Source of the DNA: Mesorhizobium sp. AR02
GTDB taxonomy: Bacteria; Pseudomonadota; Alphaproteobacteria; Rhizobiales; Rhizobiaceae
Direction: 5' to 3'
DNA length: 64,000 nucleotides
NCBI RefSeq assembly: GCF_024746835.1
Contig: NZ_CP080530.1
Location: forward strand, 434,001-498,000
In this document: piece after piece, positions 23,314 to 62,849 of the stretch
Numbering within the stretch: position 1 is the stretch's first letter
Layout: every line of letters begins with the position of its first letter
Program-made: the position numbers and the translations under genes
The notes under the pieces: model-generated
Database searches by the model: none
Told to the model about the DNA's origin: nothing
What the model saw: only the letters and a program-made list of their open reading frames with translations

Positions 23314-23551
23314 GGAGAAGGGGCGGCTATGCCGGCACTTTCGCCGTGGCTCCGCCGACGGTGGACCCCTTCCTCCGGAGGCGTTCCCGTCCTTCGGACC
23401 CTTGGCCCTTTCGGAATCGCTGTCGGCAGACGACCGTTAGATGAGATTGAACTAAGCCGCTAGTCGCGGCAATTGGTGCCCGCTTTGAGAGACGCCTCCT
23501 GTCTGAGAGGATTTGGGTGTTGCAAACCCATCCTTCAGACAGGAGATCCAG

Positions 23552-24415
23552 ATGGCTGAGATGAGCCCTCTGCGTCGCCGGATGATCGAGGACATGACAG
23601 TCCGCAATCTATCTCCGGCCACGCAGCAATCCTACCTTTATGCAGTCGCAAAGTTTAGCCGCTATTTTGGCCGATCGCCCGATCGGCTAGGCCTTGACGA
23701 TATCCATGCCTTCCAGGTTCACCTCGTGTCGAAGGGCATTTCCTGGTCGGGATTGAACCAGATCGTCTGTGCACTCCGGTTCCTCTATGGCGTAACGCTC
23801 GGCCAGGATACAATCCCGGAGCATATTCCGTATGCGCGCGAGCCTCGCCGGTTGCCGGTTGTTCTTTCCAGCGACGAGGTCGTCGAATTTCTTCAAGCTG
23901 TCTCCAGCTTGAAGGCGCGGGTGGCTCTGACAACAGCTTATGCCGCCGGTCTCAGGGTCTCGGAGGTCTGTGGTCTTCGCGCCAACGATATCGACAGCTC
24001 AAGGATGGTGATCCACATCACGCGTGGCAAAGGCGGCAAAGCCCGCTACGTCATGCTGTCGCCGGAACTGCTCGGTATCCTGCGCAGCTATTGGCGCTTG
24101 GCGCGGCCCAAGGACATTCTGTTTCCTGGGCGCGATCCTGACAAGCCGATCGAGCCGTGGGTGCTGCATTCCGCCTGCCGTTCGGCGGTTACGGCGGCGG
24201 GTCTTTCCAAGCACGTCACCGTCCATACGCTGCGGCATTCCTTTGCCACTCACCTGCTCGAGAACGGGACCGATATCCGCATCATCCAGGTCCTGCTCGG
24301 CCACGCCCACCTCTCGACAACAGCGCGCTATACGCAGGTCTCCACTGACACGATCCGGTCGACGGCCAGTCCGCTCGATCGATTACGACTGGAGGTGACG
24401 CCGCCGGAATCGTAA
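23552..24415 (+). CDS. Tyrosine recombinase/integrase of IS91-type element
   Basis: 287 residues from the ATG at 23552, preceded by AGGAG. N-terminal SAM-like DNA-binding domain (with TVRNLSPATQQSYLYAV). The catalytic domain has the Arg box AAGLRVSEVCGLR, the beta-hairpin Lys region around RGKGGKARYV, the HxxR box HTLRHSFATHLLE, the GHAHLSTT block and the nucleophile Tyr in ARYTQV. All five catalytic residues are present. Such recombinases accompany many IS91-like transposases. Identical to the gene at 60424-61287. Confidence 0.9.
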   Translation: MAEMSPLRRRMIEDMTVRNLSPATQQSYLYAVAKFSRYFGRSPDRLGLDDIHAFQVHLVSKGISWSGLNQIVCALRFLYGVTLGQDTIPEHIPYAREPRRLPVVLSSDEVVEFLQAVSSLKARVALTTAYAAGLRVSEVCGLRANDIDSSRMVIHITRGKGGKARYVMLSPELLGILRSYWRLARPKDILFPGRDPDKPIEPWVLHSACRSAVTAAGLSKHVTVHTLRHSFATHLLENGTDIRIIQVLLGHAHLSTTARYTQVSTDTIRSTASPLDRLRLEVTPPES

Positions 24416-24419
24416 TCGG

Positions 24420-25604
24420 TTGCGCCCCACCTTCGAAGTCGCCGACATCTTTCGACGACATGGGAGCTCCTACAGGCGTGAGAACGCCGGCCATCTGGGC
24501 CGCGGCGAGCGACGCGTCATGGGCGCGATCGAAGCTTGCCGGACACCCAGGCTCGGCGGTCACGTCAATGCCTGCGACGATTGCGGCAGGACCCGCATCT
24601 CCTATAATTCCTGCCGCAATCGCCATTGCCCGAAGTGTCAAGGCGCGGCCCGCAAGGAGTGGGTCGATGCACGCGTCGCCGATCTGTTGCCGGTCCCGTA
24701 CTTTCATGTGGTCTTCACGCTACCACCTGGCATCGCCGAGATCGCCTTTCACAACAAGGCGGTCGTCTATGCATTGCTGATGCGGATCGCAGCCCAGACG
24801 CTGCAGGCCGTTGCCGCCGACCCCAAGCGGCTGGGCGCCGAGATCGGCATCGTCGCCGTGCTTCACACCTGGGGCCAGGCCATGACCCATCATCCCCATG
24901 TCCATTGCGTCGTGCCCGGCGGCGGTCTCTCGCCCGGCAGGTCAAGATGGGTCGCTTGCCGGCCGGGCTTCTTTCTGCCCGTGCGCGTGCTGTCGCGCCT
25001 GTTTCGGCGGCTCTTTCTGACTGCCCTTGCCGACGTCTTCGCTCACGGTGAACTCCGCTTCTCCAACGAACTCAGCCATCTCAACGACGAGGCGTTCACC
25101 CGCCATCTCGCGCGTGCTCGCCGCGTCGAATGGGTTGTTTATTCGAAGCCACCGTTCGGCGGCCCTGACCAGGTGCTCGCCTATCTCGGCCGTTACACCC
25201 ATCGTGTTGCCATCGCCAACAGCCGCATCGTCGAGGTCGATGACGGCCATGTTGCCTTCAGATGGAAGGATTACCGTGGCAATGGTCGGGACCGCGAGAA
25301 GATCATGCGCCTTGACCCGCGCGAGTTCATCCGGCGCTTTCTTCTTCACGTGCTTCCCGCCGGCTTCCACCGCATGCGTCACTTCGGCTTTCTCGCCAAT
25401 AGCCACCGACGGGATCGGATCGGTCTCTGCAGGCAGCTCCTCGACCAGCCATCACCAGCAGGCGGGCAGCAGCAGGCCGGCAAATCACAGCACAGGCAGT
25501 CCTACGAATGCCCTGACTGCCGGCGTCCCATGCACAGGACAGGGATCACTGTTGCGCCTGTTTCGCCGCCCCGGCCATCATCTTTCTGGTGCGATACATC
25601 ATGA
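24420..25604 (+). CDS. IS91-family HUH transposase
   Basis: 394 residues from a TTG four bases after the recombinase stop. The N-terminal zinc-binding region has CDDCG followed by CRNRHCPKC. The HUH motif of rolling-circle Rep/relaxase enzymes is HHPHVHCVV at about residue 162. The region with the catalytic Tyr reads YLGRYTHRVAI. It nicks the origin end of the element and drives rolling-circle transposition. Identical to the gene at 61292-62476. Confidence 0.9.
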   Translation: MRPTFEVADIFRRHGSSYRRENAGHLGRGERRVMGAIEACRTPRLGGHVNACDDCGRTRISYNSCRNRHCPKCQGAARKEWVDARVADLLPVPYFHVVFTLPPGIAEIAFHNKAVVYALLMRIAAQTLQAVAADPKRLGAEIGIVAVLHTWGQAMTHHPHVHCVVPGGGLSPGRSRWVACRPGFFLPVRVLSRLFRRLFLTALADVFAHGELRFSNELSHLNDEAFTRHLARARRVEWVVYSKPPFGGPDQVLAYLGRYTHRVAIANSRIVEVDDGHVAFRWKDYRGNGRDREKIMRLDPREFIRRFLLHVLPAGFHRMRHFGFLANSHRRDRIGLCRQLLDQPSPAGGQQQAGKSQHRQSYECPDCRRPMHRTGITVAPVSPPRPSSFWCDTS

Positions 25605-25885
25605 ACTCCGACAATCCGCACCCCCTCCGATATGCCCGCAAAACCAAGCGCCCCGCCTGCGCGCGACACCGCTTGGCCCTGGTCACACCGAAAGACCGAC
25701 AGTGTGCATTGAGAGCGCAAAAATCGCCACCGATCGCCCGCCAAGCTGCTCGCGAAGGTCGCCGGATCAAGCCAAAATTCGGTCGTGCCACCGCTGCACG
25801 CGACGAATTCGCTATCGCCGTCAAACAGCGTGCCCTACTATCTCCATAACAGCGGCTAACAACCCGCGCCTTACTTCAATCCGGC

Positions 25886-25936
25886 TTATGTGAGGTCGCT
25901 CGAGCTCGCCGCGACGACCGATGCGACCTCACATAA
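25886..25936. repeat. 14-bp perfect inverted repeat at right end of IS91 copy 1
   Basis: TTATGTGAGGTCGC at 25886-25899 is the exact reverse complement of GCGACCTCACATAA at 25923-25936, with a 23-base spacer. It lies 14 bases inside the right border of the element. Hairpins of this kind are typical of the origin or terminus of rolling-circle elements. Confidence 0.75.
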
Positions 25937-25950
25937 CCCTCCAGATTCCG

Positions 25951-26174
25951 CCTGCGTATCCAGCAATGACTGTATTTCCGTGTCGGTTTCGCCCTGCCGT
26001 TGGACATGATGGCCCATTCTCGCGGCAACGTGCGGCGGCAGTTCCAGCATCATCAGCCCGAACAGCCGAAGCATGAAGAATGATGTGCTATTGGTTGTAA
26101 ATCATCATGCCCGAAGCCGACGAGAGAGCCGACGGATGCCGATCGACGACGACACGAACACAGAAAGCGTTTGG
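25951..26174. other. Right flank of IS91 copy 1, no intact gene
   Basis: A minus-strand frame (with MMLELPPHVAARMGHHVQ) begins at 26074 and runs into the IS91 border at 25950, so it looks like a gene cut by the element. Family not recognised. Confidence 0.35.
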
Positions 26175-26666
26175 TCAATCCGCTACGGGCTCGCCCACGG
26201 GCTCGGGCAATCTCTCGGGGAGATCGTTGCCGGGATTGGTTTCAATCGGGCCTTCACAACCCATGCCTCGACAGGGCCCGTCAAAAACTTCTTGTCTCGA
26301 ACGGGTCGAATTCTCGAACCGCGGGTACTCCGGTAGCTGTTGGGTTTGGTTGGCCTCGTCAATCGTGCAGGGGGCGTCACCGCGCATACCCGCTCCGTGC
26401 GTCCCCGCCGATCCGATAGCAACGTTCACCTTGACTTTGCCGAGTTCCTGGACCGCCTTCTACACAGTGTGGCCTGCGCCCCGGGCTATGGCTCCCGCGT
26501 CTTTGCGAACTTGATGCCAGCTGGGTCCGTGTCCCCAACCTCCGGCACGAGCGGCGCCTATAGGGCTCGCGATGCCGAAGGCGACGAGCATGATGATAAA
26601 GGCACGCGTGGACGCATCCTCCAGGATTGCCTCGGTTCCGCTTGGAACCTCACCTTTGCAACCCAT
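26175..26666 (-). pseudogene. Secreted small protein gene interrupted by one amber codon
   Basis: Reading leftward from 26666, the frame has a hydrophobic signal-like stretch IIMLVAFGIASPIGAARA followed by GWGHGPSWHQVRKDAGAIA. It meets an in-frame TAG at 26460-26462 and continues in the same frame to 26175 with KAVQELGKVKVNVAIG and a Cys/Pro-rich tail. Without the TAG the product would be about 163 residues. It is either a nonsense pseudogene or a sequencing error. Part of its signal-peptide coding sequence is repeated at 28970-29026. Confidence 0.5.
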
Positions 26667-26706
26667 GCCGCCGTGTAGCGTCCGCGCTTTGCCATTGCGG
26701 GGCGGT

Positions 26707-27222
26707 TCAAGAGTCTCGATTTTTTCTTCCTAGGACTCCTTCGCCAGGCGAAGAGCGAATTCCGAATGAAGCGTTTTCAGTCCCTGCTCGATCCTGCTTG
26801 CTTGGGTTGCGCTGGGTGTCATTCAGACGCACGATATCCTTGCTGCTGTCATCGGATTGTTGGCGGCAGACGATGCCATGCCAAACAGCGCCTTGCAGCG
26901 CCTCAGTGGCGGACTGGAAGGTCTGGTCGAGAAAACAGGCCAGACTCTTATGCACCATGTCCGTGGTCGGGTGCTTTCGGTGCGCTTCTTCAAGCTCAGC
27001 GACGACGAAGGCAGGGGCGTAATATCGGAACGGCAGCTTCTTTTCGTAGACCTTAAAGAACAGCTTTGCGCGCTCCCTTTCGAAATCATGGAGCGCGATA
27101 TGGGCAATGCTGCCGATTTTCCGGGTCAAAACGCCGGGATTGTCGCTAGGGAGCAACCCACCGCCCGATCCAGAGCCAAAATCCGCTCTGAACGATGCCC
27201 GGGGGAAAAACGAACCAACCAT
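26707..27222 (-). CDS. Hypothetical protein
   Basis: 171 residues from an ATG at 27222 that follows AGAGGTG at good spacing. The frame stays open upstream to 27546, but the ribosome site favours this start. The product has a Gly/Ser-rich start (SGSGGGLLPSDNPG) and a helical basic middle (LHDFERERAKLFFKVYEKKL). I recognise no family. It may be a genuine accessory gene or part of a decayed one. Confidence 0.4.
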   Translation of the reverse strand: MVGSFFPRASFRADFGSGSGGGLLPSDNPGVLTRKIGSIAHIALHDFERERAKLFFKVYEKKLPFRYYAPAFVVAELEEAHRKHPTTDMVHKSLACFLDQTFQSATEALQGAVWHGIVCRQQSDDSSKDIVRLNDTQRNPSKQDRAGTENASFGIRSSPGEGVLGRKNRDS

Positions 27223-27827
27223 GTTGCACCTCTGTAACGATGCGCCACCTACGCGGATGATGTGGGCATTGACGACGTAGGTTTCAATTCCGGCGAAATG
27301 ATGCTTCGTGGGTTCGGTCAACCCGCCCCCCTGCGACCGCCTTGGAGGGCGGCACTGGCATAGTTCAAACCAGGCGCCGCCGCGGATCTTCGCCCGATCC
27401 GTTCGGGACGTTGCCGTCCTAACAATCCGGGCTAGCTGAGCCTTTTGCAGCAGCACGTTCACAGAGATCACGAGTATTTGATCGGCGGAGCGCATTCCCT
27501 CACGTGTTAAGCGAGCGGCGATCCGACGCGCGCAAGCCAACCACAAGTGACGTTGCGTAAAGACTCAGCTAGGTTTGGGTGCGCGGCGGACCTCTATCCC
27601 GCCGCTTGGCCGGCGCCATCAGGTAACCTCCCCCTGCTTGGCACCGGCCGTTTTTTTGCCTCGACAGCATCAGATGCGTGAAGCCTGGCCCTTGTCGTAT
27701 CTCGGCATAGACCCCGGTTGCGAGGTGTCAAGACAAGGGAGCGCTTGGGCCGATGGCAGGCACAGGCTGCAGAAGTCGGACTATGGTCAGGGTTGCGCAG
27801 CTCGAGCGCGAGCAGCACTTGCTAAGA
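27223..27827. other. No supported gene
   Basis: About 600 bases with short overlapping frames only. The right end abuts the nodM fragment. Confidence 0.3.
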
Positions 27828-34266: not shown

Positions 34267-35172
34267 ATGAAGCAACTATTGGCGGCTTTGGTGTTTTTCG
34301 TCGTGGCCGGACCAAGCTTTGCCGGAGACGTCGGAATTGACCCCCAGATAGAATTTGGGGCAGGCCTCAAAGGCGCCTTCGACGGTGGTGCACTTACAAA
34401 ACTCAATGTCGCCCCACACTCAATCGCGACATGGTCTAATCCTTCATGGTCAGATGCTGTTCATAACCAACCGGGTGAGGGGCTCAGTTTCGGCTTCGAC
34501 ACGTTTGACCTTAAACCCAAAGTCACGAAATTCCACCTGGGTTTCGACACTCCAGATCATTGCCCAACGTGCATCATCTTCCCTCTCGATCCTCTTCCCA
34601 AAGACGCTCCGATCAAGCTTCCTCCCGACACACTTGCTCACCTTCAACCAGGTGTGAATGCACAGAGCGTCTTCCGAGAAGCCGCTGCGTGGGGCGGAGA
34701 CGACAGCGAGGTGTTGGGGTGCAATATAGGGACCAGTTCGTTCCTGAAGACGCTCAGCCACAAGCGCCCGGAATTCTCCTGGCGCCAGTTCCCGGAAGTG
34801 GTGAAGCTTTCGATCACCCGGCCCGGGACTTTGGGCGTCGAGGGATGCACGGGGACAACCGTCGGCGCCAACTGGGTACTGACCGCCGCGCACTGCATCA
34901 CGGGAAAAAGCTCGGCCGCGCTTGCCAACAACGACGCTGACCAACCGGAGGAGCAGGATTTTGTGTTCTCGCCACCGACGAACGATCAGGCGCTTCAGAT
35001 CAACGCCATGAATTCAGCACTCGTAGATGTCGACAAGGTCCGATATGGCGATAAGGCCATCGTCAATAAACTTTATGATGCCGAACGGCGTTGGTGCGCG
35101 GATATGAAATCGAATCAGCACGCTAACAAATCCGCGTCCAGCGCGAATCCCCCCGCATCCGCGACTTTCTGA
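34267..35172 (+). pseudogene. Secreted trypsin-like protease gene, 3' truncated
   Basis: Signal peptide MKQLLAALVFFVVAGPSFAG, then about 170 residues of unrecognised pro-region with a CPTCIIF motif, then the start of an S1 protease domain: EGCTGTTVGANWVLTAAHCI with the catalytic His in TAAHC. After that the frame runs another 80 residues without the Asp and Ser (GDSGG) motifs and ends in a polar, non-homologous tail. The gene has lost its catalytic C-terminal half next to the GA operon border, so the truncation probably marks an insertion or recombination junction near 35090-35180. Confidence 0.65.
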
Positions 35173-35218: not shown

Positions 35219-36268
35219 TCAACCGGCGGGCAGATGCGCCGAGGGCAACAAGCGCGCCTGACGCAACGCCGCCAGATCAGCCGAGCCGGTGCAGAAGCAG
35301 GCGACGGCCAACTGGCGGATGACGATCTCGAAATGGGCGACAACCGCCTCGGTGGACACCGTCGCCGCGCGCAGCACGCCGGCCGCCTGCCCGGCGATGT
35401 CCGCGCCCAGGCGGATGGCCTTGGCCACGTCGACGCCGTCGCGGATCCCGCCCGACGCGATCAGCTTCACCGTTGGCAGCGCCCGACGTACCGCCTGCAC
35501 GCTGGCCGGGGTCGGAATCCCCCAATCGGCGAACGCCATCGCCACTGCACGGTCGGCGGCATCGCGGGCGCGCTCGCCCTCCACCGCGGCCCAACTGGTG
35601 CCGCCGGCGCCGGCGACATCGATCACCGCCACGCCCGCCTCGACGAGCGCACAGGCCACCGAGGCGGACAGGCCCGACCCAACTTCCTTGGCTACGATCG
35701 GCACGCCCACGCTGCGCGCGGCGCGAGCGATCTGCGCCAGGACGCCGCGCCAGTCGCGGTCGCCCTCCGGCTGTACCGCTTCCTGCAGCGGATTGAGATG
35801 GACGATGAGTCCATCGGCCTCCAGCGCATCCACCGCCCGGCGCGCCAGGTCCAGGCCGTCGGCCTCGCGCAGTTGCGCGGCGCCGATATTGGCCAGCAAG
35901 GGAATGTCTGGGGCCAGGCGGCGCAGCGCGCGCGTCAGCCCCTGGGAGTTGCGGGATTGCAGGCTCACGCGCTGCGAACCGACGCACATGGCGATCCCCA
36001 AGGCTTGCGCTGCCTCGCTCAGATGCCGGTTGATGGCCTCGGCGCGTGGCATGCCGCCGGTCATGGAGCTGATCAGCAGCGGTGCGCGCATGGTCTTGTC
36101 CAGCAGCGAGGCGCGCAGGTCGATCTGCGTCAGGTCCAACTCGGGCAATGCGCAGTGTTCGAAACGGATGTACTCCCAGCCGGCGGCGACCGTGGCCGGC
36201 GCCGTTCGCCGATCCAGCACGATGTCCAGATGGCCGTCCTTGCGCCGGCTCAGGGCGGTGTCGCTCAT
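35219..36268 (-). CDS. idi: Type 2 (FMN-dependent) isopentenyl-diphosphate isomerase
   Basis: 349 residues from [16 protein letters not shown]. Type 2 IDI motifs: [44 protein letters not shown] and the FMN-phosphate site [19 protein letters not shown]. It converts IPP to DMAPP, balancing precursors for the GGPP synthase of this operon. It is the last gene, 85 bases after ks. The open frame reaches 36367, but the internal ATG matches the family start. idi is an optional member of bacterial GA operons. Confidence 0.93.
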
Positions 36269-36353
36269 GCTCGCTCCATCCGTCGCATCGGGCGACGGCG
36301 TTGCGTCGGATCGGACCGACGGCAGCGCGCGCACGCCGCCGCCTCCCGCGCGT

Positions 36354-38797
<2,444 letters not shown>

Positions 38798-39104
38798 GCG
38801 GGATGTTGCTTCTGCAGACGGTTGACGAGAACCAGGATCGGGCAGACGCCGCGCACGTCGCCGCAGGCCTGTCGCGGCCCGGCGCATGGGCAGCGCCGGA
38901 CGGCCGCCCTGCTCCGGCGCGGCGACGCGCCCCGATGCTGGCGCCGATCCGCCGCATAGGCTTGTGCGTAGCGCGCCGCGTGCGCCGCGGCCGTGCTGGG
39001 CAACCGCTGCGATCGGCGCTGCGGACTCGGACACAGTGCAGCATACACCGCTGCCGCCGGCCGATCGCAGCGGCACAGGGGCGACTCCATGCGGACGGGC
39101 GCTC
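38798..39104. other. Spacer between ggps and cps
   Basis: 307 very GC-rich bases inside the GA operon. Several frames are open merely because stops are rare at this base composition. I see no gene and no terminator. Confidence 0.5.
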
Positions 39105-40112
39105 TCATGCGCATGGCGCGTGCTTGAACAGATACGCGTTGGCCCGCTGCAGCATCTGCGCCAACCGTTCCGCACGCGGCCCAAGCGGGGCGATGGCCTC
39201 CCCGGCGTCGCGCAACAGATCCAGCGCGAACTGGCGCGCTGCCTGCAGCCCCATGATCGACGCGCAGGTCGGCTTCTGCGCCGCCGCGTCCTTGCCGGGG
39301 GTCTTGCCCAGCGCCGCGGTATCCGCTGTCGCGTCGAGAATGTCGTCGACCACCTGCAACGCCAGGCCGAAACAGGCGCTGTAGCGATCGAGCGCACAGT
39401 ACAGCGCAGCGTGCGCGGCATCCTCCGCGATGGCGCATAGCGCGCCCATGCGAACGGACGCGCGCACTAGCGCTCCACTCTTCATCCGGTGCATCGCCAC
39501 GATCCTGTCCAGCTCGACGTGCTTTCCGACCAGCGACAGATCCATGGCCTGCCCGCCTGCGGCACCCTCGGCGGACACCGCCTGCGCCAGTTCGCGCACG
39601 AGCGCGATACGGTTGTCGCCCGGCGCATCCAGGCTCGCCAGGGTCAGGAAGGCGTGCGCCTGCAGCGCATCGCCGACCAGGATCGCAGTGGCTTCGCCGA
39701 ACTTGACGTGCACGGTCGGAAGGCCGCGGCGAAGCACGTCGTCGTCCATCGCGGGCAGGTCGTCGTGGACCAGGGTACAGGCGTGAATCATCTCGATGGC
39801 GGCGCCGACGTCGTCGAGCATGTGCGCCGGCGTGTCGGCCAGTGCGCCGGCAGCCAGACAGAGCAAGGCGCGGGTGCGCTTCCCACCATGCAAGGTGGCG
39901 TAGCGCATCGCGGCCATCAGCTCGGTCTCACCGTCGTCTTCGGCGCAGAGAAGACGCGCCAGCGCCTGTTCGACCCGCTTTGCGCCGTCCTGCATCCAGA
40001 TCTCCGGCACCAGCCTGCCGGATGCGCCGCGCGCCTGCGCGCTCAATCCGCCGAGCGCGGAAACGCCAGTTCGGTCGTCGTGTAGCGTGGAACCGGTCTG
40101 CATGTTGTTCAT
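39105..40112 (-). CDS. ggps: Geranylgeranyl diphosphate synthase
   Basis: 335 residues. First aspartate-rich motif DDLPAMDDD at residues 117-125, second DDILD at 256-260, plus GGKRTRALL and the KSGALVRA block. Trans-prenyltransferase making C20 GGPP from DMAPP/FPP and IPP. It precedes cps and follows cyp117 by 145 bases. The start (Met at 40112 with Met at 40103 in the same frame) follows an ACAAGGG ribosome site. The gene looks intact. Confidence 0.93.
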   Translation of the reverse strand: MNNMQTGSTLHDDRTGVSALGGLSAQARGASGRLVPEIWMQDGAKRVEQALARLLCAEDDGETELMAAMRYATLHGGKRTRALLCLAAGALADTPAHMLDDVGAAIEMIHACTLVHDDLPAMDDDVLRRGLPTVHVKFGEATAILVGDALQAHAFLTLASLDAPGDNRIALVRELAQAVSAEGAAGGQAMDLSLVGKHVELDRIVAMHRMKSGALVRASVRMGALCAIAEDAAHAALYCALDRYSACFGLALQVVDDILDATADTAALGKTPGKDAAAQKPTCASIMGLQAARQFALDLLRDAGEAIAPLGPRAERLAQMLQRANAYLFKHAPCA

Positions 40113-40257
40113 GCCCTTGTACCCGACAGGAGACGGCCACGGCGAGCGGCGAGCCGCCGCGGTGTTGCCGGCGTCGCACCGAGCCCGCGCGCCGAGTGCA
40201 GCAATGCCGCGCGTCGCCGGCGCCGCTGCCTCGCCACACGGGGCATGCGATGCCAGC

Positions 40258-41601: not shown

Positions 41602-41610
41602 CCAGCTCCA

Positions 41611-42737: not shown

Positions 42738-42738
42738 C

Positions 42739-45313: not shown

Positions 45314-45599
45314 GGGTTGTTCGGAAATGGCGGCACTTCACTCTCTAAGCGATGGAAGGACTGCAAGCCTGGGGCTAACTATAGCCATGATGGCAGCCTC
45401 CATCCTAAAGCTTGCCACTCTCGCGTGACGTCGAATTGGCGGCAGTATGGCCGCCCGCTCGGAAAACGGGGGTTAACTTTTTGTTAAGTTATTGCTGCAG
45501 TTTTGTAACGTGACGGTCGCTGCTCTCCCGTTCGGATTACAATATCAACGGCCAGTTCGTCATTCGATGCGGCGGCGAACGGTTTCTCCCCCGCTCAGC
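45314..45599. other. Upstream region of the GA operon, no cyp115
   Basis: 286 bases between cyp112 and the IS5-family element. I looked for a remnant of cyp115, NifA sites (TGT-N10-ACA) and a sigma-54 -24/-12 pair and found none convincing. This is where the operon promoter should be unless it was displaced by the IS. Confidence 0.45.
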
Positions 45600-46661
45600 G
45601 TTGGTGCATGGATCCTTTGTCAACGGTTTGGCGATAGGCAGGCAGGATCGAAATCAGCTTGATGCGAGTGCCATGCCGTACAAACACAACGCAGATCGTC
45701 GTCATCACGTCGGAAAGATGAAATTCAGGGTGACGAATTGGCGTGACTACGAAGCAGGTCTGCGCCGGCGTGGTAGCCTGACCTTATGGGTAACGCCGGA
45801 GGCACTTGCGGGATGGCGCGCTCCGCGACGCAAGACCCGCGGCGGCCAAGCCCGGTATTCCGATCTCGCCATTGAGACAGCGCTGACGCTGGGTTGCGTC
45901 TTGGCAATGCGGCTGCGCCAGACCGAGGGATTGCTCCACTCGCTGCTGGATCTCATGGGGCTGAAAGTCCCAGTTCCAGATCATACGACGCTGAGCCGTC
46001 GGGCACAGAAGTGGGAGCCATCAGCCCGACGAAACCCGCCGCTGCCGGACGGCCCGCTGCATGTGCTTGTCGATAGCACGGGATTGAAAGTCTACGGCGC
46101 CGGGCAATGGCTGGAGCAGAAACATGGCGCCAGATCACGTCGCAACTGGCGCAAGCTGCATCTGGCAGTGGATGCCAAAAGTGGCGCGATCATTGCCCAA
46201 AGGCTGACAGATCAGGACACGGATGATCCTTCCCAGGTGGCACCGCTGCTCGATCAGATCGACGGCGAGATCGACCAGTTCACAGCCGACGGAGCCTATG
46301 ACGGCAAGCCAACCTATCGGTCTATCCTGCAGCACAGCGCAACCGCGAACATCGTCATTCCACCGCGTTCCACGGCGGTGGAAAGCGGTGATACCGGACC
46401 GCCTGGTCAAAGGGACAAGCACATTGCCGCAATCGCAAGCGACGGTCGGCTGAAATGGCAGGCAGCCACCGGCTACGGCAAGCGGGCGCTGAGCGAAACA
46501 GCCATCGGACGATACAAGGGGCTGATCGGACGGCGCCTGCGAGCACGCTCTCTTCCGGCTCAACAAACCGAGGTTGCCATCGGTTGCATCGTTCTCAACC
46601 GCATGCTGGCATGGGCACGCCCGGAGTCTATCCGGCGTCAAGTCACGCAGGCATAACCAAC
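45600..46661 (+). mobile_element. IS5-family insertion sequence
   Basis: About 1062 bases with imperfect terminal inverted repeats (left GTTGGTGCATG, right end CATAACCAAC). It contains one transposase gene. It separates the GA operon from a Tn3 tnpA tail. Confidence 0.65.
45676..46656 (+). CDS. IS5-family transposase
   Basis: 326 residues from the ATG at 45676 (an earlier frame opening at 45601 is less likely). DDE motifs of the IS5 group: [18 protein letters not shown] (first Asp), [12 protein letters not shown] (second Asp region) and the C-terminal [19 protein letters not shown] (Glu block with the YREK-like RYKxxxGxxLxxR). Intact. Confidence 0.88.
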
Positions 46662-46823
46662 TACATTAAAGATCGAAATGCGTTCGATTTCATATCCGCG
46701 CACCAACGCCCGCCGGAAGACTATCGCGGCCTCACGCCTCTGATCTACAGTCACGTCAATCCTTATGGCCGTTTCGATCTCGACTTGAATAGTCGGATCG
46801 ATTTTGATCGGCTGGCGGCATAA
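46662..46823 (+). pseudogene. Tn3-family TnpA, C-terminal remnant
   Basis: The frame reads IKDRNAFDF, then [19 protein letters not shown] and ends DFDRLAA. This is the extreme C-terminus of Tn3-family transposases. The rest of tnpA has been removed at the IS5 border. The tnpR, the passenger genes and the toxin-antitoxin-like pair that follow belong to the same wrecked transposon. Confidence 0.7.
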
Positions 46824-55015: not shown

Positions 55016-55113
55016 GGCTCTGTTGCAAACTCTTTGGTCACGGGTTGTCTGGCAATGGCCTTCGATGGGTTTCGGAGGTTTCAGATGTTCAAGGGGCGCC
55101 ATTTCGATCGATC
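55016..55113 (+). mobile_element. IS6-family element, 5' remnant (left part)
   Basis: Begins with the terminal sequence GGCTCTGTTGCAAA of a second IS6-family type and includes the transposase start MFKGRHFDRS. It is interrupted at 55113 by the IS66-family element. The coding sequence resumes at 60284 as GATCCGTCATCCTGCTGCG (RSVILLR), then is cut by IS91 copy 2 at 60316. Confidence 0.75.
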
Positions 55114-55160
55114 GTAAGCGCGAATTTCTCCGCACCTTTTTCCATTGAGCGTGTTTTGGC

Positions 55161-55661
55161 ATGAAGTGTCCACTTAACGGAGGTGGACACCAAGTGATTG
55201 AGGACGATGAACAGAAACTGCTGGTGAGGCGGATTTTGCGCAACGGCCGCCGGCGGTACGACCCGGCGTCGAAAGAGCGGCTAGTTGCGGCCTGCCTTGA
55301 GCCTGGCGTGTCGGTATCGCGACTTGCGCTTGAATATGGGATCAATGCCAACCTTCTTCGGAAATGGATAAAGACGACCAAAGACGCCGGTGCTTTGCCG
55401 CCACCTGCACCGTCTGCGTTCATTCCAGTTCAAGTCACCGCTGCGGACCACAGCCTGCCTATGCAGAGCAATTCGGTGGACAGGCCTGCTGCGCGTGGTG
55501 AAGAGCGGCTGTCGAAGTCGGAAAGCATGGGCTCATTGCCACTCCCAGCCAAGGTGAGCGCGTCTTTGCCGAACGGCGTGAAGCTGGTGCTGGAATGCGG
55601 TGATGTAGACGCGTTGACGGCGATCATTGGAGCTCTGGGCCATGTTCAGACTGGGCGCTGA
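55161..55661 (+). CDS. tnpA: IS66 TnpA
   Basis: 166 residues with the IS66 orfA helix-turn-helix: RRYDPASKERLVAACL and VSRLALEYGINANLLRKW. A GTG at 55194 after GGAGG is an alternative and perhaps better start (VIEDDEQ). It overlaps tnpB. Confidence 0.85.
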   Translation: MKCPLNGGGHQVIEDDEQKLLVRRILRNGRRRYDPASKERLVAACLEPGVSVSRLALEYGINANLLRKWIKTTKDAGALPPPAPSAFIPVQVTAADHSLPMQSNSVDRPAARGEERLSKSESMGSLPLPAKVSASLPNGVKLVLECGDVDALTAIIGALGHVQTGR

Positions 55662-55995
55662 TCTCAACGTCTACCTGCACCGCGAGCCGATCGATTTTAG
55701 GGCCGGCATCAACAGCCTTGCGGTCCTGGTTCAGGAGGTGATGGAGCTTGACCCATTTGCGCCTGCGGTCTTTGCATTTTGCAATCGCCGCCGCGACCGG
55801 ATGAAACTCTTGTTCTTCGACCGGTCCGGCTTCGTGCTGGTTCTGAAGCGGCTGACCGAAGACAGGTTCCGATGGCCACGCCGGGAGACGGCGGTGGTTA
55901 CGCTGACGACCGAGCAGCTCCATTGGATTCTCGACGGCATCGACATCGATGCAATGGTGCGCCATCCGGTGCGGCAATATCAGGTTGCGGGCTGA
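55642..55995 (+). CDS. tnpB: IS66 TnpB
   Basis: 117 residues, the classic IS66 orf2 protein: starts MFRLGADLNVYLHREPIDF and includes RAGINSLAVLV, FAFCNRRRDRMKLLFFDRSGF and LKRLTEDRFRWP. It overlaps tnpA by 20 bases and is intact. Confidence 0.9.
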   Translation: MFRLGADLNVYLHREPIDFRAGINSLAVLVQEVMELDPFAPAVFAFCNRRRDRMKLLFFDRSGFVLVLKRLTEDRFRWPRRETAVVTLTTEQLHWILDGIDIDAMVRHPVRQYQVAG

Positions 55996-56049
55996 CGGCT
56001 CCCGAATTGTGCGGTTGACGCGTCGGTGCGGTTCAGATTCAAAACTACG

Positions 56050-57501
56050 ATGAATCGACCTGGCGAACCGACTGTTGAGGAGTTGATGGCGCGCATTGCT
56101 GTGCTGCAGGCGGAGAACCGTCAGCTCGCAGAACGCGTGGTTAAGCTCGAGGAAGAGTTGGCGCTGGCGCGCTCACATCGTTTTGCGCCCAAGAGCGAAA
56201 AGCACGTTGATCGCCTTTTCAATGAAGCCGAACAGGTTGCCGATGAAGACGACGCCGGCAGCGAAGATGGCAATGTGGTCGACCTGCCGGACACCGGCTT
56301 TCCGTCCACCGAAAAAAAGCCGGAGGGAAAGAAGCGTGGCCGCAAGGCCCTGCCGGAACACCTGCCGCGCGAGCGCGTCGAGTATGACCTTCCCGAAGAT
56401 CAGAAGGCCTGTCCTTGCTGTCGTCACCGGATGCACCACATGGGCGAGGCCATTACCGAGCAGCTTCATATCGAGGTGAAGGCGAAGGTCCTGCAGAATG
56501 TGCGCTTCAAGTATGCCTGCCGCCATTGCGACCGTACCGGCATCAATACGCCGGTCGTGATCGCGCCGATGCCCGCGCAGCCCTTGCCGGGCAGCATCGC
56601 CACGGCCTCGACACTGGCATTTGCTCTTGTTCACAAGTACGTCGACGGCACGCCGCTCTACCGCTTGAGCCAGGCATTCGAGCGAGCCGGCGTGCCCGTC
56701 AGCCGCGGCGCTCTGGGGCATTGGGTGATCGGATCGAGCGAGAAGCATCTCTCCCGCATCTATGACGCACTGAAGCTGCGGCTCAGGTCTCAAGCACTCA
56801 TCCATGGCGACGAGACCACCGTCCAGGTCCTGAAGGAAAAGGACAGGGAGGCCACCAGCACATCATTTATGTGGGCATACCGGAGCGGCGAAGAGAGTAA
56901 CGAGCCGATCGTGCTGCTCGATTATCAACCGGGTCGCGGCCAGATTTATCCGCAGGCCTTCCTCGGCGATTACCGCGGCATACTGATGAGCGATGGCTAT
57001 ACCGCATGGCGCACGCTGGCAGGGGCCACCCATGTGGGATGCATGGCCCATTCCAGACGTCGCTTCGTCGATGCCCTCAAGGCAAGAAAGAAGGGGGGCG
57101 GTCCGCCGGAGCAGGCGCTCAAGTTCTTCGAGCAGCTCTACCGGGTTGAAGGCCAAGTTCGGAACGAAAAGCCGGACAAGGGCGAAACACAAGCCGATTG
57201 CATTCGCCGCTTTCGCCAGCAACACAGCGTTCCCATCCTCAATGCTCTCAAGGCATGGCTCGACGACATCGCGCCGAAGGTCTTGCCCGATAGCAAGATC
57301 GGCGACGCCGTGTCCTACACTCTGAACCAGTGGGAGTACCTGACGCGATACACAGAAGACGGCAGGATGCCGATCGACAACAACCTCCTCGAACGCGATA
57401 TCAGAATCTTTGCAACGACCGATTCATACTGCACCTCTCCTCAAACGTCCGGAAACAGGGACTTTTGGTTTTCCATTTTGATGCGACACGGGCCCCTGTG
57501 A
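56050..57501 (+). pseudogene. tnpC: IS66 TnpC transposase, 5' part (interrupted)
   Basis: The transposase starts MNRPGEPTVEELMARI with an N-terminal leucine-zipper-like region, a zinc-binding CPCCRHRM block, then the DDE core including LIHGDETTVQVL, GRGQIYPQAFLGDYRGILMSDGY and MPIDNNLLERDIRIFAT. At 57420 the reading frame passes into the inserted serine-recombinase element and soon stops. The C-terminal 70 residues are found at 60001-60213. Confidence 0.88.
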
Positions 57502-59510
57502 CGCGGAAACTGGGTTACTTGATCCTTTTCCAGGTCCGTGGCTCGTATTTGGTGCGGCGCATCCGGAACAACCTGCTCGGTAGGGAGCACGCCCTCCTTG
57601 ATCAGTCGACGGACACGATGGGCTGTAACTCCAAGCTTTTTGGCAGCTTCGGTCAGCGTGAGCCATTCGCCATTCTTTTCGGCGGATCGGTAGCCGTGGA
57701 TTTTATGGACCGTGCGCAGTGCCCCGACACGGCGCGCCGTCCAGGTTTTGCCTTGTCCGGTCTGCATTCCCATCCGGTTGAGAGTGGCGGCAATGTTTGC
57801 GTCGGACCAGCGGGTAGCCATAGACCGCATGACGGCAAGGGCGGCCTCCGGAGTACTCTGGCCATGTTCGCCAGCTTTGGGTTTGCGAATACGCAGCTGG
57901 GAGTGCTGGCCACCCCTCCAGTGGATCGTCAAAATAACTTCACGTTGCTCTTCATCGACGTCAGCGATGATATCCGACACGAGGGTGCGGAGGAGCTGCT
58001 GACGGCAACGCATATCGACGTCAGGCGCGCGCCAGGCAGCCTCCAGGTCGGTGGCAATGCCAGCAAAATCGGGAACTGGGGTGACAAGATCGATTTGTCG
58101 CGCTTGGGCCAAACCCGCTTCACAGGCTTCCACGCGCCTGAGCGCTGCCTCCCAGCTCTTCTCAAGTTGGGCAGCGATCAGCCGGTTGTCGGGGTCGCAA
58201 GCGGCATAGCGACGCTCAGCGAGAGATGCCTCGTATCGAGCTTGCTGCAAGTCCAGCTCCACCATACGGTGTCGTTCTTCCAGATTATCCCGATGCGCAC
58301 GATCAGCTTCCATTGCGGCCTCGATCGCCATTGGCGTCACGGCTCTCAATATCTCTTTGCCGATGGCAGGGTCGATGCGAGATGCGCCAAAAGTCATGCA
58401 TCGCGGCTTGGCCAGCATCTGGTTGATACGTTCGCAGCGGTAATAGGGATGACCCGGAGGCCGGCCCGAATAGACAACGCCCAACCGCCTTCCACATCGG
58501 CCGCAGGTGAGCAGGCCCGCAAGCAGCGCACGGCCGCCACGACCCGACTTGATGCCGCCTTTCTGTCCAAAGGCATTGACGGCGATATGGCTCTGGTTCC
58601 GCTCAAACTCACTCCAATCGATATAACCTTCATGATGATCCTGGAGCAGCACTTCCCACGTTCCAAAGGGCTTGTTGTGGCCGTAGCTTTTGCGAGCCCT
58701 GCCATCGACAATCTCCGTTCGCTTCTCGCTTTTACCATAGACATAGACCCCGGCGTAGAATGGGTTCTTCAGGATCGAAATAACACTTCGATAGCGAACC
58801 GGCACCCAGTCGAAGGACACCGTTTTGCGCCCGTCAGAAGGGCGGGGAAAATGGAAATTATCAGCCGTCAGCGAAATCAGCACCTGGCGGGCGCTGCCAA
58901 GCTCGCGGAAGCGCGAAAAGATGAGGCGGATCGCCTGCTGTACCCGAAGATCAGGATCAAGCCCCAGACCGTATTCACGATGCCAGATATAGCCGATCGG
59001 AACACTGAGGCGCAGTTCCCCCCGCCGCGCTTTGGCGCGAGCCGCGTCAAGCATGCGCGTTCGCAATATGCCGAGCTCAAACTCGCTGATGCTGCCCTTC
59101 ATACCCAACAACAATCGATCGTTAGGCCGACAAGGATCGTACACCCCGTCGAGATCTATGACGCGCGCTTCAACCAGGCCGCACAGTTCCAGGAGGTGGT
59201 GCCAATCCCGGCCGTTACGGGAAAGGCGCGATGCGTCGAGGCAGAGCACTGCGCCAACTTTGCCTGTGCACAGGCCGCTCACCAGTCGCTCGAAACCAGG
59301 GCGGTCGACAGCGCCGCTGGCGGTCCGACCAAGGTCATCGTCGATCACCTCGACATCATGGAATCCCCAGCGGCGCGCAACATCCACAAGTTCATATTGT
59401 CGCCGCTGGCTTTCCAGGTTGTTCTGGACCTGACCGGGGGTCGACTGTCGAACGTAGACCACAGCTTTGCGCTTCAGCACCGTCGCTGGAAGGAGATCAT
59501 TGCCCGTCAT
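57441..59510 (-). CDS. Large serine recombinase
   Basis: 689 residues. Catalytic domain with YVRQSTPGQVQNN (nucleophile Ser at residue 23), DASRLSRNGRDWH and an Arg-rich helix GSISEFELGILRTRM. The recombinase domain with VISILKNPFYAGVYVYG follows, then a zinc ribbon TCGRCGRRL with later paired Cys, a coiled-coil stretch, and a C-terminal helix-turn-helix with LTEAAKKLGVTAHRVRRL of excisionase/MerR type. It starts four bases inside the stop of the small gene (ATGA). Complete and apparently functional. Confidence 0.92.
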   Translation of the reverse strand: MTGNDLLPATVLKRKAVVYVRQSTPGQVQNNLESQRRQYELVDVARRWGFHDVEVIDDDLGRTASGAVDRPGFERLVSGLCTGKVGAVLCLDASRLSRNGRDWHHLLELCGLVEARVIDLDGVYDPCRPNDRLLLGMKGSISEFELGILRTRMLDAARAKARRGELRLSVPIGYIWHREYGLGLDPDLRVQQAIRLIFSRFRELGSARQVLISLTADNFHFPRPSDGRKTVSFDWVPVRYRSVISILKNPFYAGVYVYGKSEKRTEIVDGRARKSYGHNKPFGTWEVLLQDHHEGYIDWSEFERNQSHIAVNAFGQKGGIKSGRGGRALLAGLLTCGRCGRRLGVVYSGRPPGHPYYRCERINQMLAKPRCMTFGASRIDPAIGKEILRAVTPMAIEAAMEADRAHRDNLEERHRMVELDLQQARYEASLAERRYAACDPDNRLIAAQLEKSWEAALRRVEACEAGLAQARQIDLVTPVPDFAGIATDLEAAWRAPDVDMRCRQQLLRTLVSDIIADVDEEQREVILTIHWRGGQHSQLRIRKPKAGEHGQSTPEAALAVMRSMATRWSDANIAATLNRMGMQTGQGKTWTARRVGALRTVHKIHGYRSAEKNGEWLTLTEAAKKLGVTAHRVRRLIKEGVLPTEQVVPDAPHQIRATDLEKDQVTQFPRHRGPCRIKMENQKSLFPDV

Positions 59511-59968
59511 CGCTCGTCTCCTTCGTCGCGACGCCGGCCGCGGCCATCAGGAGGGTCGCCAGCCCGGCGACAACAACGCTTCGTTCCGGGTCGCTCAGGC
59601 CTCGCATCTGCGGCGTATCGAGCGGCATGCTCAGCTGCTGGGTCAGCACCGGTAATGTCGAGGGTGGTGGTGGTAAAGCCTTCATGGCGCGCCTCCTGGA
59701 TGGCCGTGAGTCCATCCGTCGAAGTCTGCCTGAAACCGCGCTCGGTAAGCAGTCTATGAAGCTCTACAAGTCCAATCACCGCAACGCGCGGTTCGCCCAT
59801 CTCCATGTTGGCGCAAAACGCCCGATCCAGCATCCACTCTGCGACCTGAATGATCTCACCCGGCCTAATCTCGACCCGAATGATCGAACCGTTAGCCCGA
59901 TCCTCCCGACCTTCATGCCGGAATCGGCCGCCGTAATATGGATGCCAGCGATAATGAAACTCTACCAT
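59507..59968 (-). CDS. Small accessory protein of the recombinase element
   Basis: 153 residues. N-terminal part FHYRWHPYYGGRF, then a beta-rich middle (IIRVEIRPGEII) and a basic Arg-rich C-terminus. It resembles the short DUF5372-type proteins found beside such recombinases, a weak match. Translation is coupled to the recombinase by a 4-base overlap. Confidence 0.65.
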   Translation of the reverse strand: MVEFHYRWHPYYGGRFRHEGREDRANGSIIRVEIRPGEIIQVAEWMLDRAFCANMEMGEPRVAVIGLVELHRLLTERGFRQTSTDGLTAIQEARHEGFTTTTLDITGADPAAEHAARYAADARPERPGTKRCCRRAGDPPDGRGRRRDEGDER

Positions 59969-60000
59969 CTGCCCGACATGGGCAGAATGACCCTGCGATG

Positions 60001-60213
60001 ACCACCGGCAGAAAATCCTGGCTGTTCAGCGATACCGTGGATGGAGCCAGGGCCAGCGCCGTCATATACAGCCTGATGCTGACCTGCCGCGCCTGTGGCG
60101 TCGAGCCCTTGGCCTACTTGCGCTACGTCCTCAGCGAATTGCCGCAGCGCGCCACAGACGCCGACATCACCGACCTGCTGCCCTTCAACTTCGCCAAAAC
60201 CGCCGCTGCATGA
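60001..60213 (+). pseudogene. tnpC: IS66 TnpC, C-terminal part
   Basis: The frame encodes GRKSWLFSDTVDGARAS and ends DITDLLPFNFAKTAAA, the C-terminus of IS66 transposases, continuing the frame lost at 57420. Confidence 0.88.
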
Positions 60214-60423
60214 TCCGATGCAGCCGTCTGACAGCGACCCCGTCAAACGGGCCGCGTCAACGCGCATGGAAATGAGCGCTTACGAATCGATCCGTCATCC
60301 TGCTGCGTATTCCAATGATTGAACTAAGCCGCTAGTCGCGGCAATTGGTGCCCGCTTTGAGAGACGCCTCCTGTCTGAGAGGATTTGGGTGTTGCAAACC
60401 CATCCTTCAGACAGGAGATCCAG

Positions 60424-61287
60424 ATGGCTGAGATGAGCCCTCTGCGTCGCCGGATGATCGAGGACATGACAGTCCGCAATCTATCTCCGGCCACGCAGCA
60501 ATCCTACCTTTATGCAGTCGCAAAGTTTAGCCGCTATTTTGGCCGATCGCCCGATCGGCTAGGCCTTGACGATATCCATGCCTTCCAGGTTCACCTCGTG
60601 TCGAAGGGCATTTCCTGGTCGGGATTGAACCAGATCGTCTGTGCACTCCGGTTCCTCTATGGCGTAACGCTCGGCCAGGATACAATCCCGGAGCATATTC
60701 CGTATGCGCGCGAGCCTCGCCGGTTGCCGGTTGTTCTTTCCAGCGACGAGGTCGTCGAATTTCTTCAAGCTGTCTCCAGCTTGAAGGCGCGGGTGGCTCT
60801 GACAACAGCTTATGCCGCCGGTCTCAGGGTCTCGGAGGTCTGTGGTCTTCGCGCCAACGATATCGACAGCTCAAGGATGGTGATCCACATCACGCGTGGC
60901 AAAGGCGGCAAAGCCCGCTACGTCATGCTGTCGCCGGAACTGCTCGGTATCCTGCGCAGCTATTGGCGCTTGGCGCGGCCCAAGGACATTCTGTTTCCTG
61001 GGCGCGATCCTGACAAGCCGATCGAGCCGTGGGTGCTGCATTCCGCCTGCCGTTCGGCGGTTACGGCGGCGGGTCTTTCCAAGCACGTCACCGTCCATAC
61101 GCTGCGGCATTCCTTTGCCACTCACCTGCTCGAGAACGGGACCGATATCCGCATCATCCAGGTCCTGCTCGGCCACGCCCACCTCTCGACAACAGCGCGC
61201 TATACGCAGGTCTCCACTGACACGATCCGGTCGACGGCCAGTCCGCTCGATCGATTACGACTGGAGGTGACGCCGCCGGAATCGTAA
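60424..61287 (+). CDS. Tyrosine recombinase of IS91 copy 2
   Basis: Same 287-residue product as at 23552-24415, no difference seen. All five catalytic residues of the Arg, Lys, HxxR, His and Tyr set are present. Confidence 0.9.
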   Translation: MAEMSPLRRRMIEDMTVRNLSPATQQSYLYAVAKFSRYFGRSPDRLGLDDIHAFQVHLVSKGISWSGLNQIVCALRFLYGVTLGQDTIPEHIPYAREPRRLPVVLSSDEVVEFLQAVSSLKARVALTTAYAAGLRVSEVCGLRANDIDSSRMVIHITRGKGGKARYVMLSPELLGILRSYWRLARPKDILFPGRDPDKPIEPWVLHSACRSAVTAAGLSKHVTVHTLRHSFATHLLENGTDIRIIQVLLGHAHLSTTARYTQVSTDTIRSTASPLDRLRLEVTPPES

Positions 61288-61291
61288 TCGG

Positions 61292-62476
61292 TTGCGCCCC
61301 ACCTTCGAAGTCGCCGACATCTTTCGACGACATGGGAGCTCCTACAGGCGTGAGAACGCCGGCCATCTGGGCCGCGGCGAGCGACGCGTCATGGGCGCGA
61401 TCGAAGCTTGCCGGACACCCAGGCTCGGCGGTCACGTCAATGCCTGCGACGATTGCGGCAGGACCCGCATCTCCTATAATTCCTGCCGCAATCGCCATTG
61501 CCCGAAGTGTCAAGGCGCGGCCCGCAAGGAGTGGGTCGATGCACGCGTCGCCGATCTGTTGCCGGTCCCGTACTTTCATGTGGTCTTCACGCTACCACCT
61601 GGCATCGCCGAGATCGCCTTTCACAACAAGGCGGTCGTCTATGCATTGCTGATGCGGATCGCAGCCCAGACGCTGCAGGCCGTTGCCGCCGACCCCAAGC
61701 GGCTGGGCGCCGAGATCGGCATCGTCGCCGTGCTTCACACCTGGGGCCAGGCCATGACCCATCATCCCCATGTCCATTGCGTCGTGCCCGGCGGCGGTCT
61801 CTCGCCCGGCAGGTCAAGATGGGTCGCTTGCCGGCCGGGCTTCTTTCTGCCCGTGCGCGTGCTGTCGCGCCTGTTTCGGCGGCTCTTTCTGACTGCCCTT
61901 GCCGACGTCTTCGCTCACGGTGAACTCCGCTTCTCCAACGAACTCAGCCATCTCAACGACGAGGCGTTCACCCGCCATCTCGCGCGTGCTCGCCGCGTCG
62001 AATGGGTTGTTTATTCGAAGCCACCGTTCGGCGGCCCTGACCAGGTGCTCGCCTATCTCGGCCGTTACACCCATCGTGTTGCCATCGCCAACAGCCGCAT
62101 CGTCGAGGTCGATGACGGCCATGTTGCCTTCAGATGGAAGGATTACCGTGGCAATGGTCGGGACCGCGAGAAGATCATGCGCCTTGACCCGCGCGAGTTC
62201 ATCCGGCGCTTTCTTCTTCACGTGCTTCCCGCCGGCTTCCACCGCATGCGTCACTTCGGCTTTCTCGCCAATAGCCACCGACGGGATCGGATCGGTCTCT
62301 GCAGGCAGCTCCTCGACCAGCCATCACCAGCAGGCGGGCAGCAGCAGGCCGGCAAATCACAGCACAGGCAGTCCTACGAATGCCCTGACTGCCGGCGTCC
62401 CATGCACAGGACAGGGATCACTGTTGCGCCTGTTTCGCCGCCCCGGCCATCATCTTTCTGGTGCGATACATCATGA
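61292..62476 (+). CDS. IS91-family HUH transposase, copy 2
   Basis: Same 394-residue product as at 24420-25604, including the HVH motif and the CxxC/HCxxC zinc region. Same TTG start four bases after the recombinase. Confidence 0.9.
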   Translation: MRPTFEVADIFRRHGSSYRRENAGHLGRGERRVMGAIEACRTPRLGGHVNACDDCGRTRISYNSCRNRHCPKCQGAARKEWVDARVADLLPVPYFHVVFTLPPGIAEIAFHNKAVVYALLMRIAAQTLQAVAADPKRLGAEIGIVAVLHTWGQAMTHHPHVHCVVPGGGLSPGRSRWVACRPGFFLPVRVLSRLFRRLFLTALADVFAHGELRFSNELSHLNDEAFTRHLARARRVEWVVYSKPPFGGPDQVLAYLGRYTHRVAIANSRIVEVDDGHVAFRWKDYRGNGRDREKIMRLDPREFIRRFLLHVLPAGFHRMRHFGFLANSHRRDRIGLCRQLLDQPSPAGGQQQAGKSQHRQSYECPDCRRPMHRTGITVAPVSPPRPSSFWCDTS

Positions 62477-62757
62477 ACTCCGACAATCCGCACCCCCTCC
62501 GATATGCCCGCAAAACCAAGCGCCCCGCCTGCGCGCGACACCGCTTGGCCCTGGTCACACCGAAAGACCGACAGTGTGCATTGAGAGCGCAAAAATCGCC
62601 ACCGATCGCCCGCCAAGCTGCTCGCGAAGGTCGCCGGATCAAGCCAAAATTCGGTCGTGCCACCGCTGCACGCGACGAATTCGCTATCGCCGTCAAACAG
62701 CGTGCCCTACTATCTCCATAACAGCGGCTAACAACCCGCGCCTTACTTCAATCCGGC

Positions 62758-62808
62758 TTATGTGAGGTCGCTCGAGCTCGCCGCGACGACCGATGCGACC
62801 TCACATAA
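62758..62808. repeat. 14-bp inverted repeat at right end of IS91 copy 2
   Basis: Exact copy of the inverted repeat at 25886-25936, again 14 bases inside the right border. Confidence 0.75.
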
Positions 62809-62849
62809 CCCTCCAGATTCCGGACAGTGATTCCGAGACGAAACCGGAC

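What the first reader, a model, noticed from the sequence alone, without database searches (positions are those of the whole stretch)
23445..62822. GA operon and neighbours bracketed by two apparently identical 2.5-kb IS91-type direct repeats
The 2506-bp element at 23445-25950 recurs at 60317-62822 in the same orientation, offset 36872 throughout, with no difference seen. The proteins and their spacings match exactly. The enclosed 34 kb contains the whole GA operon. Homologous recombination between the copies would excise or amplify a 36.9-kb circle. IS91-type elements can also carry adjacent DNA by one-ended rolling-circle transposition. Identity implies a recent event and would be an alternative to conjugative transfer for GA-operon spread.
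Basis: partly seen in the sequence, partly recalled or inferred. Interest (0 to 1): 0.75.

Follow-up and report, generated by a model that had tools for sequence, protein, structure and literature searches.

The report
Two independent IS91-type insertions
Two identical jumping genes sit on either side of a plant-hormone gene cluster in a rhizobial plasmid, but related strains keep the uninterrupted landing sites, so the copies most likely landed separately and did not carry the cluster between them.

Summary
A third identical copy lies about 440 kb away, inverted. The element is an IS91-family IS: HUH/Y2 transposase, a tyrosine-recombinase gene and a 3' hairpin.

The bracket does not mark a mobile unit. 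The joined flanks of copy A equal an uninterrupted stretch of AR07 plasmid pMspAR07b (50 of 50 bases at the join; 98.1% over 1,054 bp). The joined flanks of copy B equal uninterrupted IS21-type termini in four relatives (47-50 bp). Each copy is a 2,499-bp insertion in front of GATTCC. Backbone DNA crosses border A; in G046 the GA operon abuts DNA that here lies beyond copy B.

Recombination between the copies is possible but untested. Nothing found supports IS91 carriage of the GA operon, whose SDR gene has an 8-bp frameshifting deletion.

By-product: the IS end is followed by GATT, not the GTTC/CTTG reported for IS1294, and 8 of 13 distinct landing sites of close copies are IS21 termini.

The parts
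23445..25943 (+). Copy A of the IS91-family element, 2,499 bp (GATTGAAC...CCTCCA), followed by target GATTCC at 25944-25949
   Evidence: identity to copy B; net size from the empty site in AR07; end-to-end distance 2,499
60317..62815 (+). Copy B, identical, followed by target GATTCC at 62816-62821
   Evidence: empty sites
23513..24415 (+). ORF1, tyrosine recombinase (Phage_integrase PF00589, 135 bits); same at 60385-61287
24420..25604 (+). ORF2, IS91 transposase (NF033538, 432 bits; Y2_Tnp; HHPHVH and YLGRY motifs; N-terminal zinc domain); same at 61292-62476
25883..25939 (+). oriIS-like hairpin, 17-bp arms, a few bases before the 3' end
   Evidence: (z -4.58)
22880..23444 (+). Left flank of copy A, contiguous with 25944-26432 in AR07 pMspAR07b
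25944..27435 (+). Right flank of copy A: same ancestral locus, inside the bracket (in AR07 as collinear blocks with 1.1-1.8 kb of extra DNA between them)
55106..60292 (+). IS66-family element left of copy B with imperfect 8-bp target duplication (GATCGATC/AATCGATC), itself interrupted by a serine-recombinase element (gene 57444-59510, minus)
60304..60316 (+). Tip of an IS21-type terminus (TGCGTATTCCAAT) interrupted by copy B; continues at 62816-62849
62816..62849 (+). Rest of the IS21-type terminus right of copy B, apparently ended by an element with a DDE_Tnp_IS240 transposase (62905-63606, minus)
35222..45328 (-). GA operon: fni, KS, CPS, GGPS, CYP117, SDR (frameshifted), Fd, CYP114, CYP112
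41614..42442 (-). SDR gene of the GA operon, 8-bp deletion relative to six relatives near 42155 shifts the frame
35087..35114 (+). Solitary 28-bp terminal repeat of the IS5-like element at the left edge of the GA block; AR07 backbone homology stops at 35086
45592..46713 (+). IS5-like element (transposase 45601-46656); its right terminal repeat 46683-46710 is the exact inverted partner of 35087-35114

Best explanation
The direct repeats are two of three identical copies of one IS91-family insertion sequence that transposed separately into GATTCC sites on the same replicon. Events A and B were two-ended and precise: the transposase's rolling-circle product, from the hairpin (oriIS) end to the GATT-starting 5' end (terIS), was placed immediately 5' of a target GATTCC, adding 2,499 bp and no neighbouring DNA. 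The 34 kb between them, including the GA operon, is a mosaic of plasmid backbone, the GA block and other transposons that happened to lie between the two landing sites. Shown: identity, protein families, hairpin, empty sites, linkage across both borders. Inferred: rolling-circle mechanism (from family), recency (from identity), order of events.
For: Empty site A: AR07 pMspAR07b equals the joined flanks over 50 of 50 bases at the join and is 98.1% over 1,054 bp; G046 91.8%/668 bp and G049 77.5%/329 bp also run through the site. Empty site B: 47-50 bp across the join at 100%, 100%, 98.0% and 97.9% in G142, G032, G040 and G135. The same 2,499-bp element stands at copy C with other flanks, and 1.0-3.2% diverged copies elsewhere in AR07 and M. 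amorphae. Linkage: 22880-27435 is collinear in AR07 apart from extra DNA there; in G046 the GA block end (45358) is followed after 43 bases by the homologue, 87.7%, of window coordinates 68262-71406, outside the bracket.
Against: Empty site B rests on 47-50 bp of a repeated IS21-type terminus, not on long unique flanks. In G046 and G049, site A is uninterrupted but the target bases differ at the junction. Copy C lacks the first five bases (CACAC for GATTG), so not every event was perfectly two-ended. Whether the left GATT is the element's own end or a 4-bp target duplication cannot be decided.
Confidence: 0.95

Rival explanations
1. The bracket is an IS91-mobilised unit: the 34 kb (or a circle of IS plus 34 kb) moved in by one-ended rolling-circle transposition or by recombination of a circle with a resident copy.
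For: Two identical direct repeats enclose the GA operon. One-ended carriage by IS1294 and deletion by recombination between IS1294 copies are proposed in PMC6052338 (passages seen).
Against: Empty sites for both copies; backbone continuous across border A; GA block linked in G046 to DNA outside border B. No other genome of the 145 searched showed an IS at site A; only three of the six with any match to left flank A span the site.
Confidence: 0.03
2. The bracket, however it arose, is now an active excision/amplification unit of 36.9 kb through RecA-dependent recombination.
For: 2.5 kb of perfect identity in direct orientation is an ample substrate by established knowledge.
Against: No scar seen in the few relatives that hold left flank A; other direct repeats nearby (IS66 copies, 93% over 2.3 kb) are comparable substrates, so nothing is special about this pair. 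Not directly testable here.
Confidence: 0.3
3. The GA block came in through IS5-family ends rather than IS91: 35087-46710 has 28-bp exact inverted ends, and backbone homology stops at 35086.
For:: AR07 homology ends at 35086 where the solitary terminal repeat begins; an IS5-like transposase gene lies inside the right end.
Against: No matching target duplication seen by eye outside the two ends; the sequence after 46713 reads like the 3' end of a Tn3-type transposase gene (by eye), so rearrangement after an ordinary IS insertion is equally possible; no empty site was found.
Confidence: 0.25

Closest known systems
IS91 family (IS91, IS1294, IS801)
   Same: HUH/Y2 transposase with zinc domain, hairpin near the 3' end, no terminal inverted repeats by eye, tetranucleotide at the 5' end repeats the target tetranucleotide beside the 3' end
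   Different: target GATT(CC) instead of GTTC/CTTG as stated for IS1294 (PMC6052338, passages seen); an upstream tyrosine-recombinase gene of 300 aa
Composite transposon or translocatable unit flanked by IS copies
   Same: two direct IS copies enclose a gene cluster
   Different: both copies are separate insertions with their own empty sites, and no unit border was found to coincide with the IS
GA (gibberellin) biosynthetic operon of rhizobia
   Same: gene order and 96.7% DNA identity to M. amorphae pM0123d; IS elements flanking GA operons are already in print (PMC7273348, passages seen)
   Different: SDR is frameshifted here

Membership tests
IS91 family | HUH transposase with two tyrosines (Y2) and IS91 profile | tested here: met
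   NF033538 432 bits against cut-off 125; Y2_Tnp 226 bits; HHPHVH and YLGRY present
IS91 family | hairpin at the 3' (oriIS) end | tested here: met
   17-bp arms, 94% complementary, z -4.58
IS91 family | no terminal inverted repeats, no target duplication | tested here: inconclusive
   ends are unalike by eye; one GATT in the empty site and GATT at both ends of the insert can be read as a 4-bp duplication or as terIS plus target
IS91 family | target tetranucleotide GTTC/CTTG (read on the other strand GAAC/CAAG) beside oriIS | tested here: not met
   GATT follows the end in 34 of 35 exact-tail matches, GATTCC in 23 of 35; the target is known for IS1294 from PMC6052338 (passages) and for IS91 itself only recalled, and is a subgroup feature rather than a family criterion
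IS91 family | rolling-circle transposition activity | not testable with these tools
   needs a transposition assay
IS-flanked mobile unit | unit borders coincide with the IS copies; outer flanks joined in an empty relative | tested here: not met
   each copy's own flanks are joined in relatives instead
IS-flanked mobile unit | circular form or scar | not testable with these tools
   no reads; among six other genomes with any match to left flank A no scar was seen, three of them reaching the junction; right flank B was not searched alone
rhizobial GA operon | CYP112-CYP114-Fd-SDR-CYP117-GGPS-CPS-KS with fni | tested here: met
   all nine found in order; eight in one frame over 98.7-100% of their length, SDR in two frames

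The most novel reading that the evidence does not exclude
This is a branch of IS91-type elements, equipped with a tyrosine recombinase, that recognises GATT(CC) and homes to the terminal repeats of IS21-family elements, in two cases exactly 4 bp inside the IS21 tip (TGCG|GATTCC). It thereby uses other mobile elements as safe harbours and perhaps as vehicles.
Probability: 0.5. Interest if true: 0.45.

Novelty: new member of a known kind. Interest (0 to 1): 0.27.

Why it matters
It removes a tempting but unsupported route for spread of the gibberellin operon: flanking identical IS copies are not evidence of mobility until the empty sites are checked. It also gives exact ends and a target for this IS, and points to a testable preference for IS21 termini that would make insertion predictable.

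Tried and rejected
Carriage of the 34 kb by IS91: rejected by the empty sites. Assembly artefact: judged unlikely because the flanks are distinct and supported in relatives. A sharp operon-wide breakpoint at 45359, suspected because the plasmid hits shown nearly all stop there: rejected, since 25 of the other 29 loci compared share further sequence beyond it (by eye), so the break belongs to this plasmid and a few others. IS5-type end pair as the true vehicle: left open. The genome's species was not identified: Mesorhizobium onobrychidis (PMC9603459, passages seen) has other replicon sizes. Papers: searches listed nothing that I recognised by title or abstract as IS91 insertion into IS21 ends; no wider claim is made.
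Full report
Check of the observation. The two stretches are identical over 2,506 bp at offset 36,872 and the identity stops exactly at the stated ends. The window is bases 434001-498000 of a 988,422-bp contig in an 8.9-Mb, 4-contig genome. A third copy, inverted, at contig position 15967-18466 is identical over query positions 6-2505; longer relatives at 66-69% are common in the genome. The genus search (146 genomes, the own one included, two candidates scored per genome) found copies at 90% or more in 3 of the 145 others: G002, G135 and G119.

What the element is. ORF1 is a tyrosine recombinase and ORF2 an IS91 transposase with HHPHVH and YLGRY motifs. A hairpin closes the 3' end. The ends show no inverted repeat by eye. 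This is the anatomy of an IS91-family IS; the names oriIS and terIS are used by analogy.

Are the copies borders of a unit? If they were, the sequence just inside A would be foreign to that just outside A. It is not. AR07 plasmid pMspAR07b carries 22880-23444 directly joined to 25944-26432 (98.1% over 1,054 bp), and the 50 bases at the join equal the window's flanks put together...GACCGTTAGATGA GATTCCGCCTGCG.... G046 and G049 hold the same uninterrupted locus at 91.8% over 668 bp and 77.5% over 329 bp, with base differences in the target itself. Seven of 146 genomes match the left flank, one being the own genome. Of the six others these three span the junction without an IS; in G025 the similarity ends at 23355, as it does in strain 131-2-5; G085 and G004 match only part of the query and do not reach the junction.

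Copy B lies in a nest. An IS66-family element with an imperfect 8-bp target duplication stands 24 bp to its left and is itself split by a serine-recombinase element. Taking IS66 and IS91 away leaves TGCGTATTCCAAT GATTCCGGACAGTGATTCC..., of which a 30-nt stretch across the join occurs in 8 of 146 genomes with up to 3 mismatches and exactly in G032, G135 and G142. In the four that I aligned (G142, G032, G040, G135; the other four were not aligned) it spans 47-50 bp at 97.9-100%. In G142 it lies beside an istB-like gene (by eye), so it is probably the istB-side terminus of an IS21-type element. This empty site is therefore short and repetitive, and weaker evidence than site A.

The linkage test agrees. 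Of 25944-35086, 5,299 of 9,143 bases match AR07 pMspAR07b in blocks, in two orientations, so much of the left part of the enclosed DNA is plasmid backbone. The GA block starts at 35111 as compared with G136, 35159 with M. amorphae and 35183 with G046, and ends at 45358-45359. In G046 the DNA 43 bases after the GA block (231608-234766) corresponds to window coordinates 68262-71406 at 87.7%, beyond copy B. So 45359-68262, copy B included, is extra DNA in this plasmid relative to G046.

Does the GA operon travel with this IS elsewhere? In one search, 23 of the 145 other genomes hold essentially the whole operon (matches of about 10.1-10.2 kb). Two of these 23 (G002, G119) also have a copy of the IS at 90% or more. 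In G119 it is on another contig; in G002 the two copies that one search placed lie about 73 kb and 512 kb from the operon, and a third on that plasmid was not placed. IS elements flanking GA operons were already noted in print (PMC7273348, passages seen).

How it most likely works. Copies A and B were inserted by the transposase as a complete element immediately 5' of GATTCC. The right end CCTCCA is followed by GATT in 34 of 35 exact-tail matches pooled from window, plasmids and genome contigs, duplicates included, and by GATTCC in 23 of 35; the one without GATT, L164, is a Bacteroidia contig. The left end begins GATT in 15 of the 17 left ends listed, duplicates included; the exceptions are copy C and L113. 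This matches the IS1294 logic in which the terIS end resembles the target (PMC6052338, passages seen), but with another tetranucleotide.

A by-product. I grouped the 34 GATT matches by eye into 24 distinct right flanks (ten rows merged, L164 dropped). Measured against the element, 13 of these 24 belong to copies at least 90% identical over more than 1 kb: A, B, C, L028, L106, L029, L030, L113, L114, L116, L117, L118, L146. Of these 13, 8 match IS91-free IS21 termini at E <= 1e-3: B, C, L028, L030, L114, L116, L117, L118; the matches of B and L028 are weak, and L118 matches by construction, since the references were found with its own flank, leaving 7 of 12. Of the other 11 right flanks, 3 match (L149 with 286 bp of the element at 82.5%, L153 with a 57-bp tail, and the L151 group with no element body), and 8 do not, five of them with a 69-72% relative of the element (L145, L148, L150, L154, L155). 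As a control, 64 GATTCC sites in 184 kb of this contig gave 1 match, and that one lies in copy B's own IS21 remnant. Two IS91-free IS21 copies in Shinella share only TGCG before GATTCC, which makes TGCG the likely IS21 tip; in L028 and L030 the IS91 copy stands exactly between TGCG and GATTCC, and in L114 and L115 between TGTA and GATTCC. Among L028, L114 and L118 the IS21 partners differ more (istA 51-84% aa) than the IS91 copies (91.8-99.6% to the window's DNA; L118 over half the element), which argues for repeated landing rather than one composite. The sample is small and the grouping is mine.

State of the operon. All nine genes are present in order; eight read in one frame over 98.7-100% of their length, but SDR falls into two frames. 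An 8-bp deletion absent from six aligned relatives explains it. SDR is needed for gibberellin formation (recalled), so production by this strain is doubtful. A sequencing error was not excluded.

Verdict. The repeat is real and exact; the bracket is most likely the chance spacing of two ordinary IS insertions. Recombination between them is possible and untested.

Noticed in passing
window 41614-42442, near 42155: SDR gene of the GA operon has an 8-bp deletion that shifts the frame, absent from six relatives; a separate 6-bp deletion upstream keeps the frame.
   Followed up: partly
window 35087-35114 and 46683-46710: 28-bp exact inverted repeats, the right end of an IS5-like element, enclose the GA block tightly; AR07 backbone homology stops at 35086.
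   Followed up: partly
copies B and C, L028, L030, L114, L116, L117, L118: The IS91-type element sits in terminal repeats of IS21-family elements in 8 of 13 distinct sites of close copies, in front of GATTCC, in L028 and L030 exactly 4 bp from the tip.
   Followed up: partly
L151, L159, L161, L163, L165: Rhizobium altiplani and R. mesoamericanum carry only the last bases of the IS91 tail in front of an IS21-type terminus, with no element body, as if a remnant had become part of that IS21's end.
   Followed up: no
L114 and L115: Two Rhizobium plasmids carry nearly the same IS21 flank behind the IS91 copy but different outer left flanks, as if an IS21 with the IS91 inside had itself transposed.
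   Followed up: no
window 48549-49097 and 46714-46820: Resolvase gene and, by eye, the 3' end of a Tn3-type transposase gene beside the IS5-like element: possible remnants of a Tn3-family transposon.
   Followed up: no
window 62850 onward and 50818-51089: An element with a DDE_Tnp_IS240 transposase appears to cut the IS21 remnant right of copy B; a 97% identical fragment lies inside the bracket.
   Followed up: no
window 1-23355: Polysaccharide gene cluster syntenic at about 90% with plasmid MesoLj131b2 of Mesorhizobium sp. 131-2-5.
   Followed up: no
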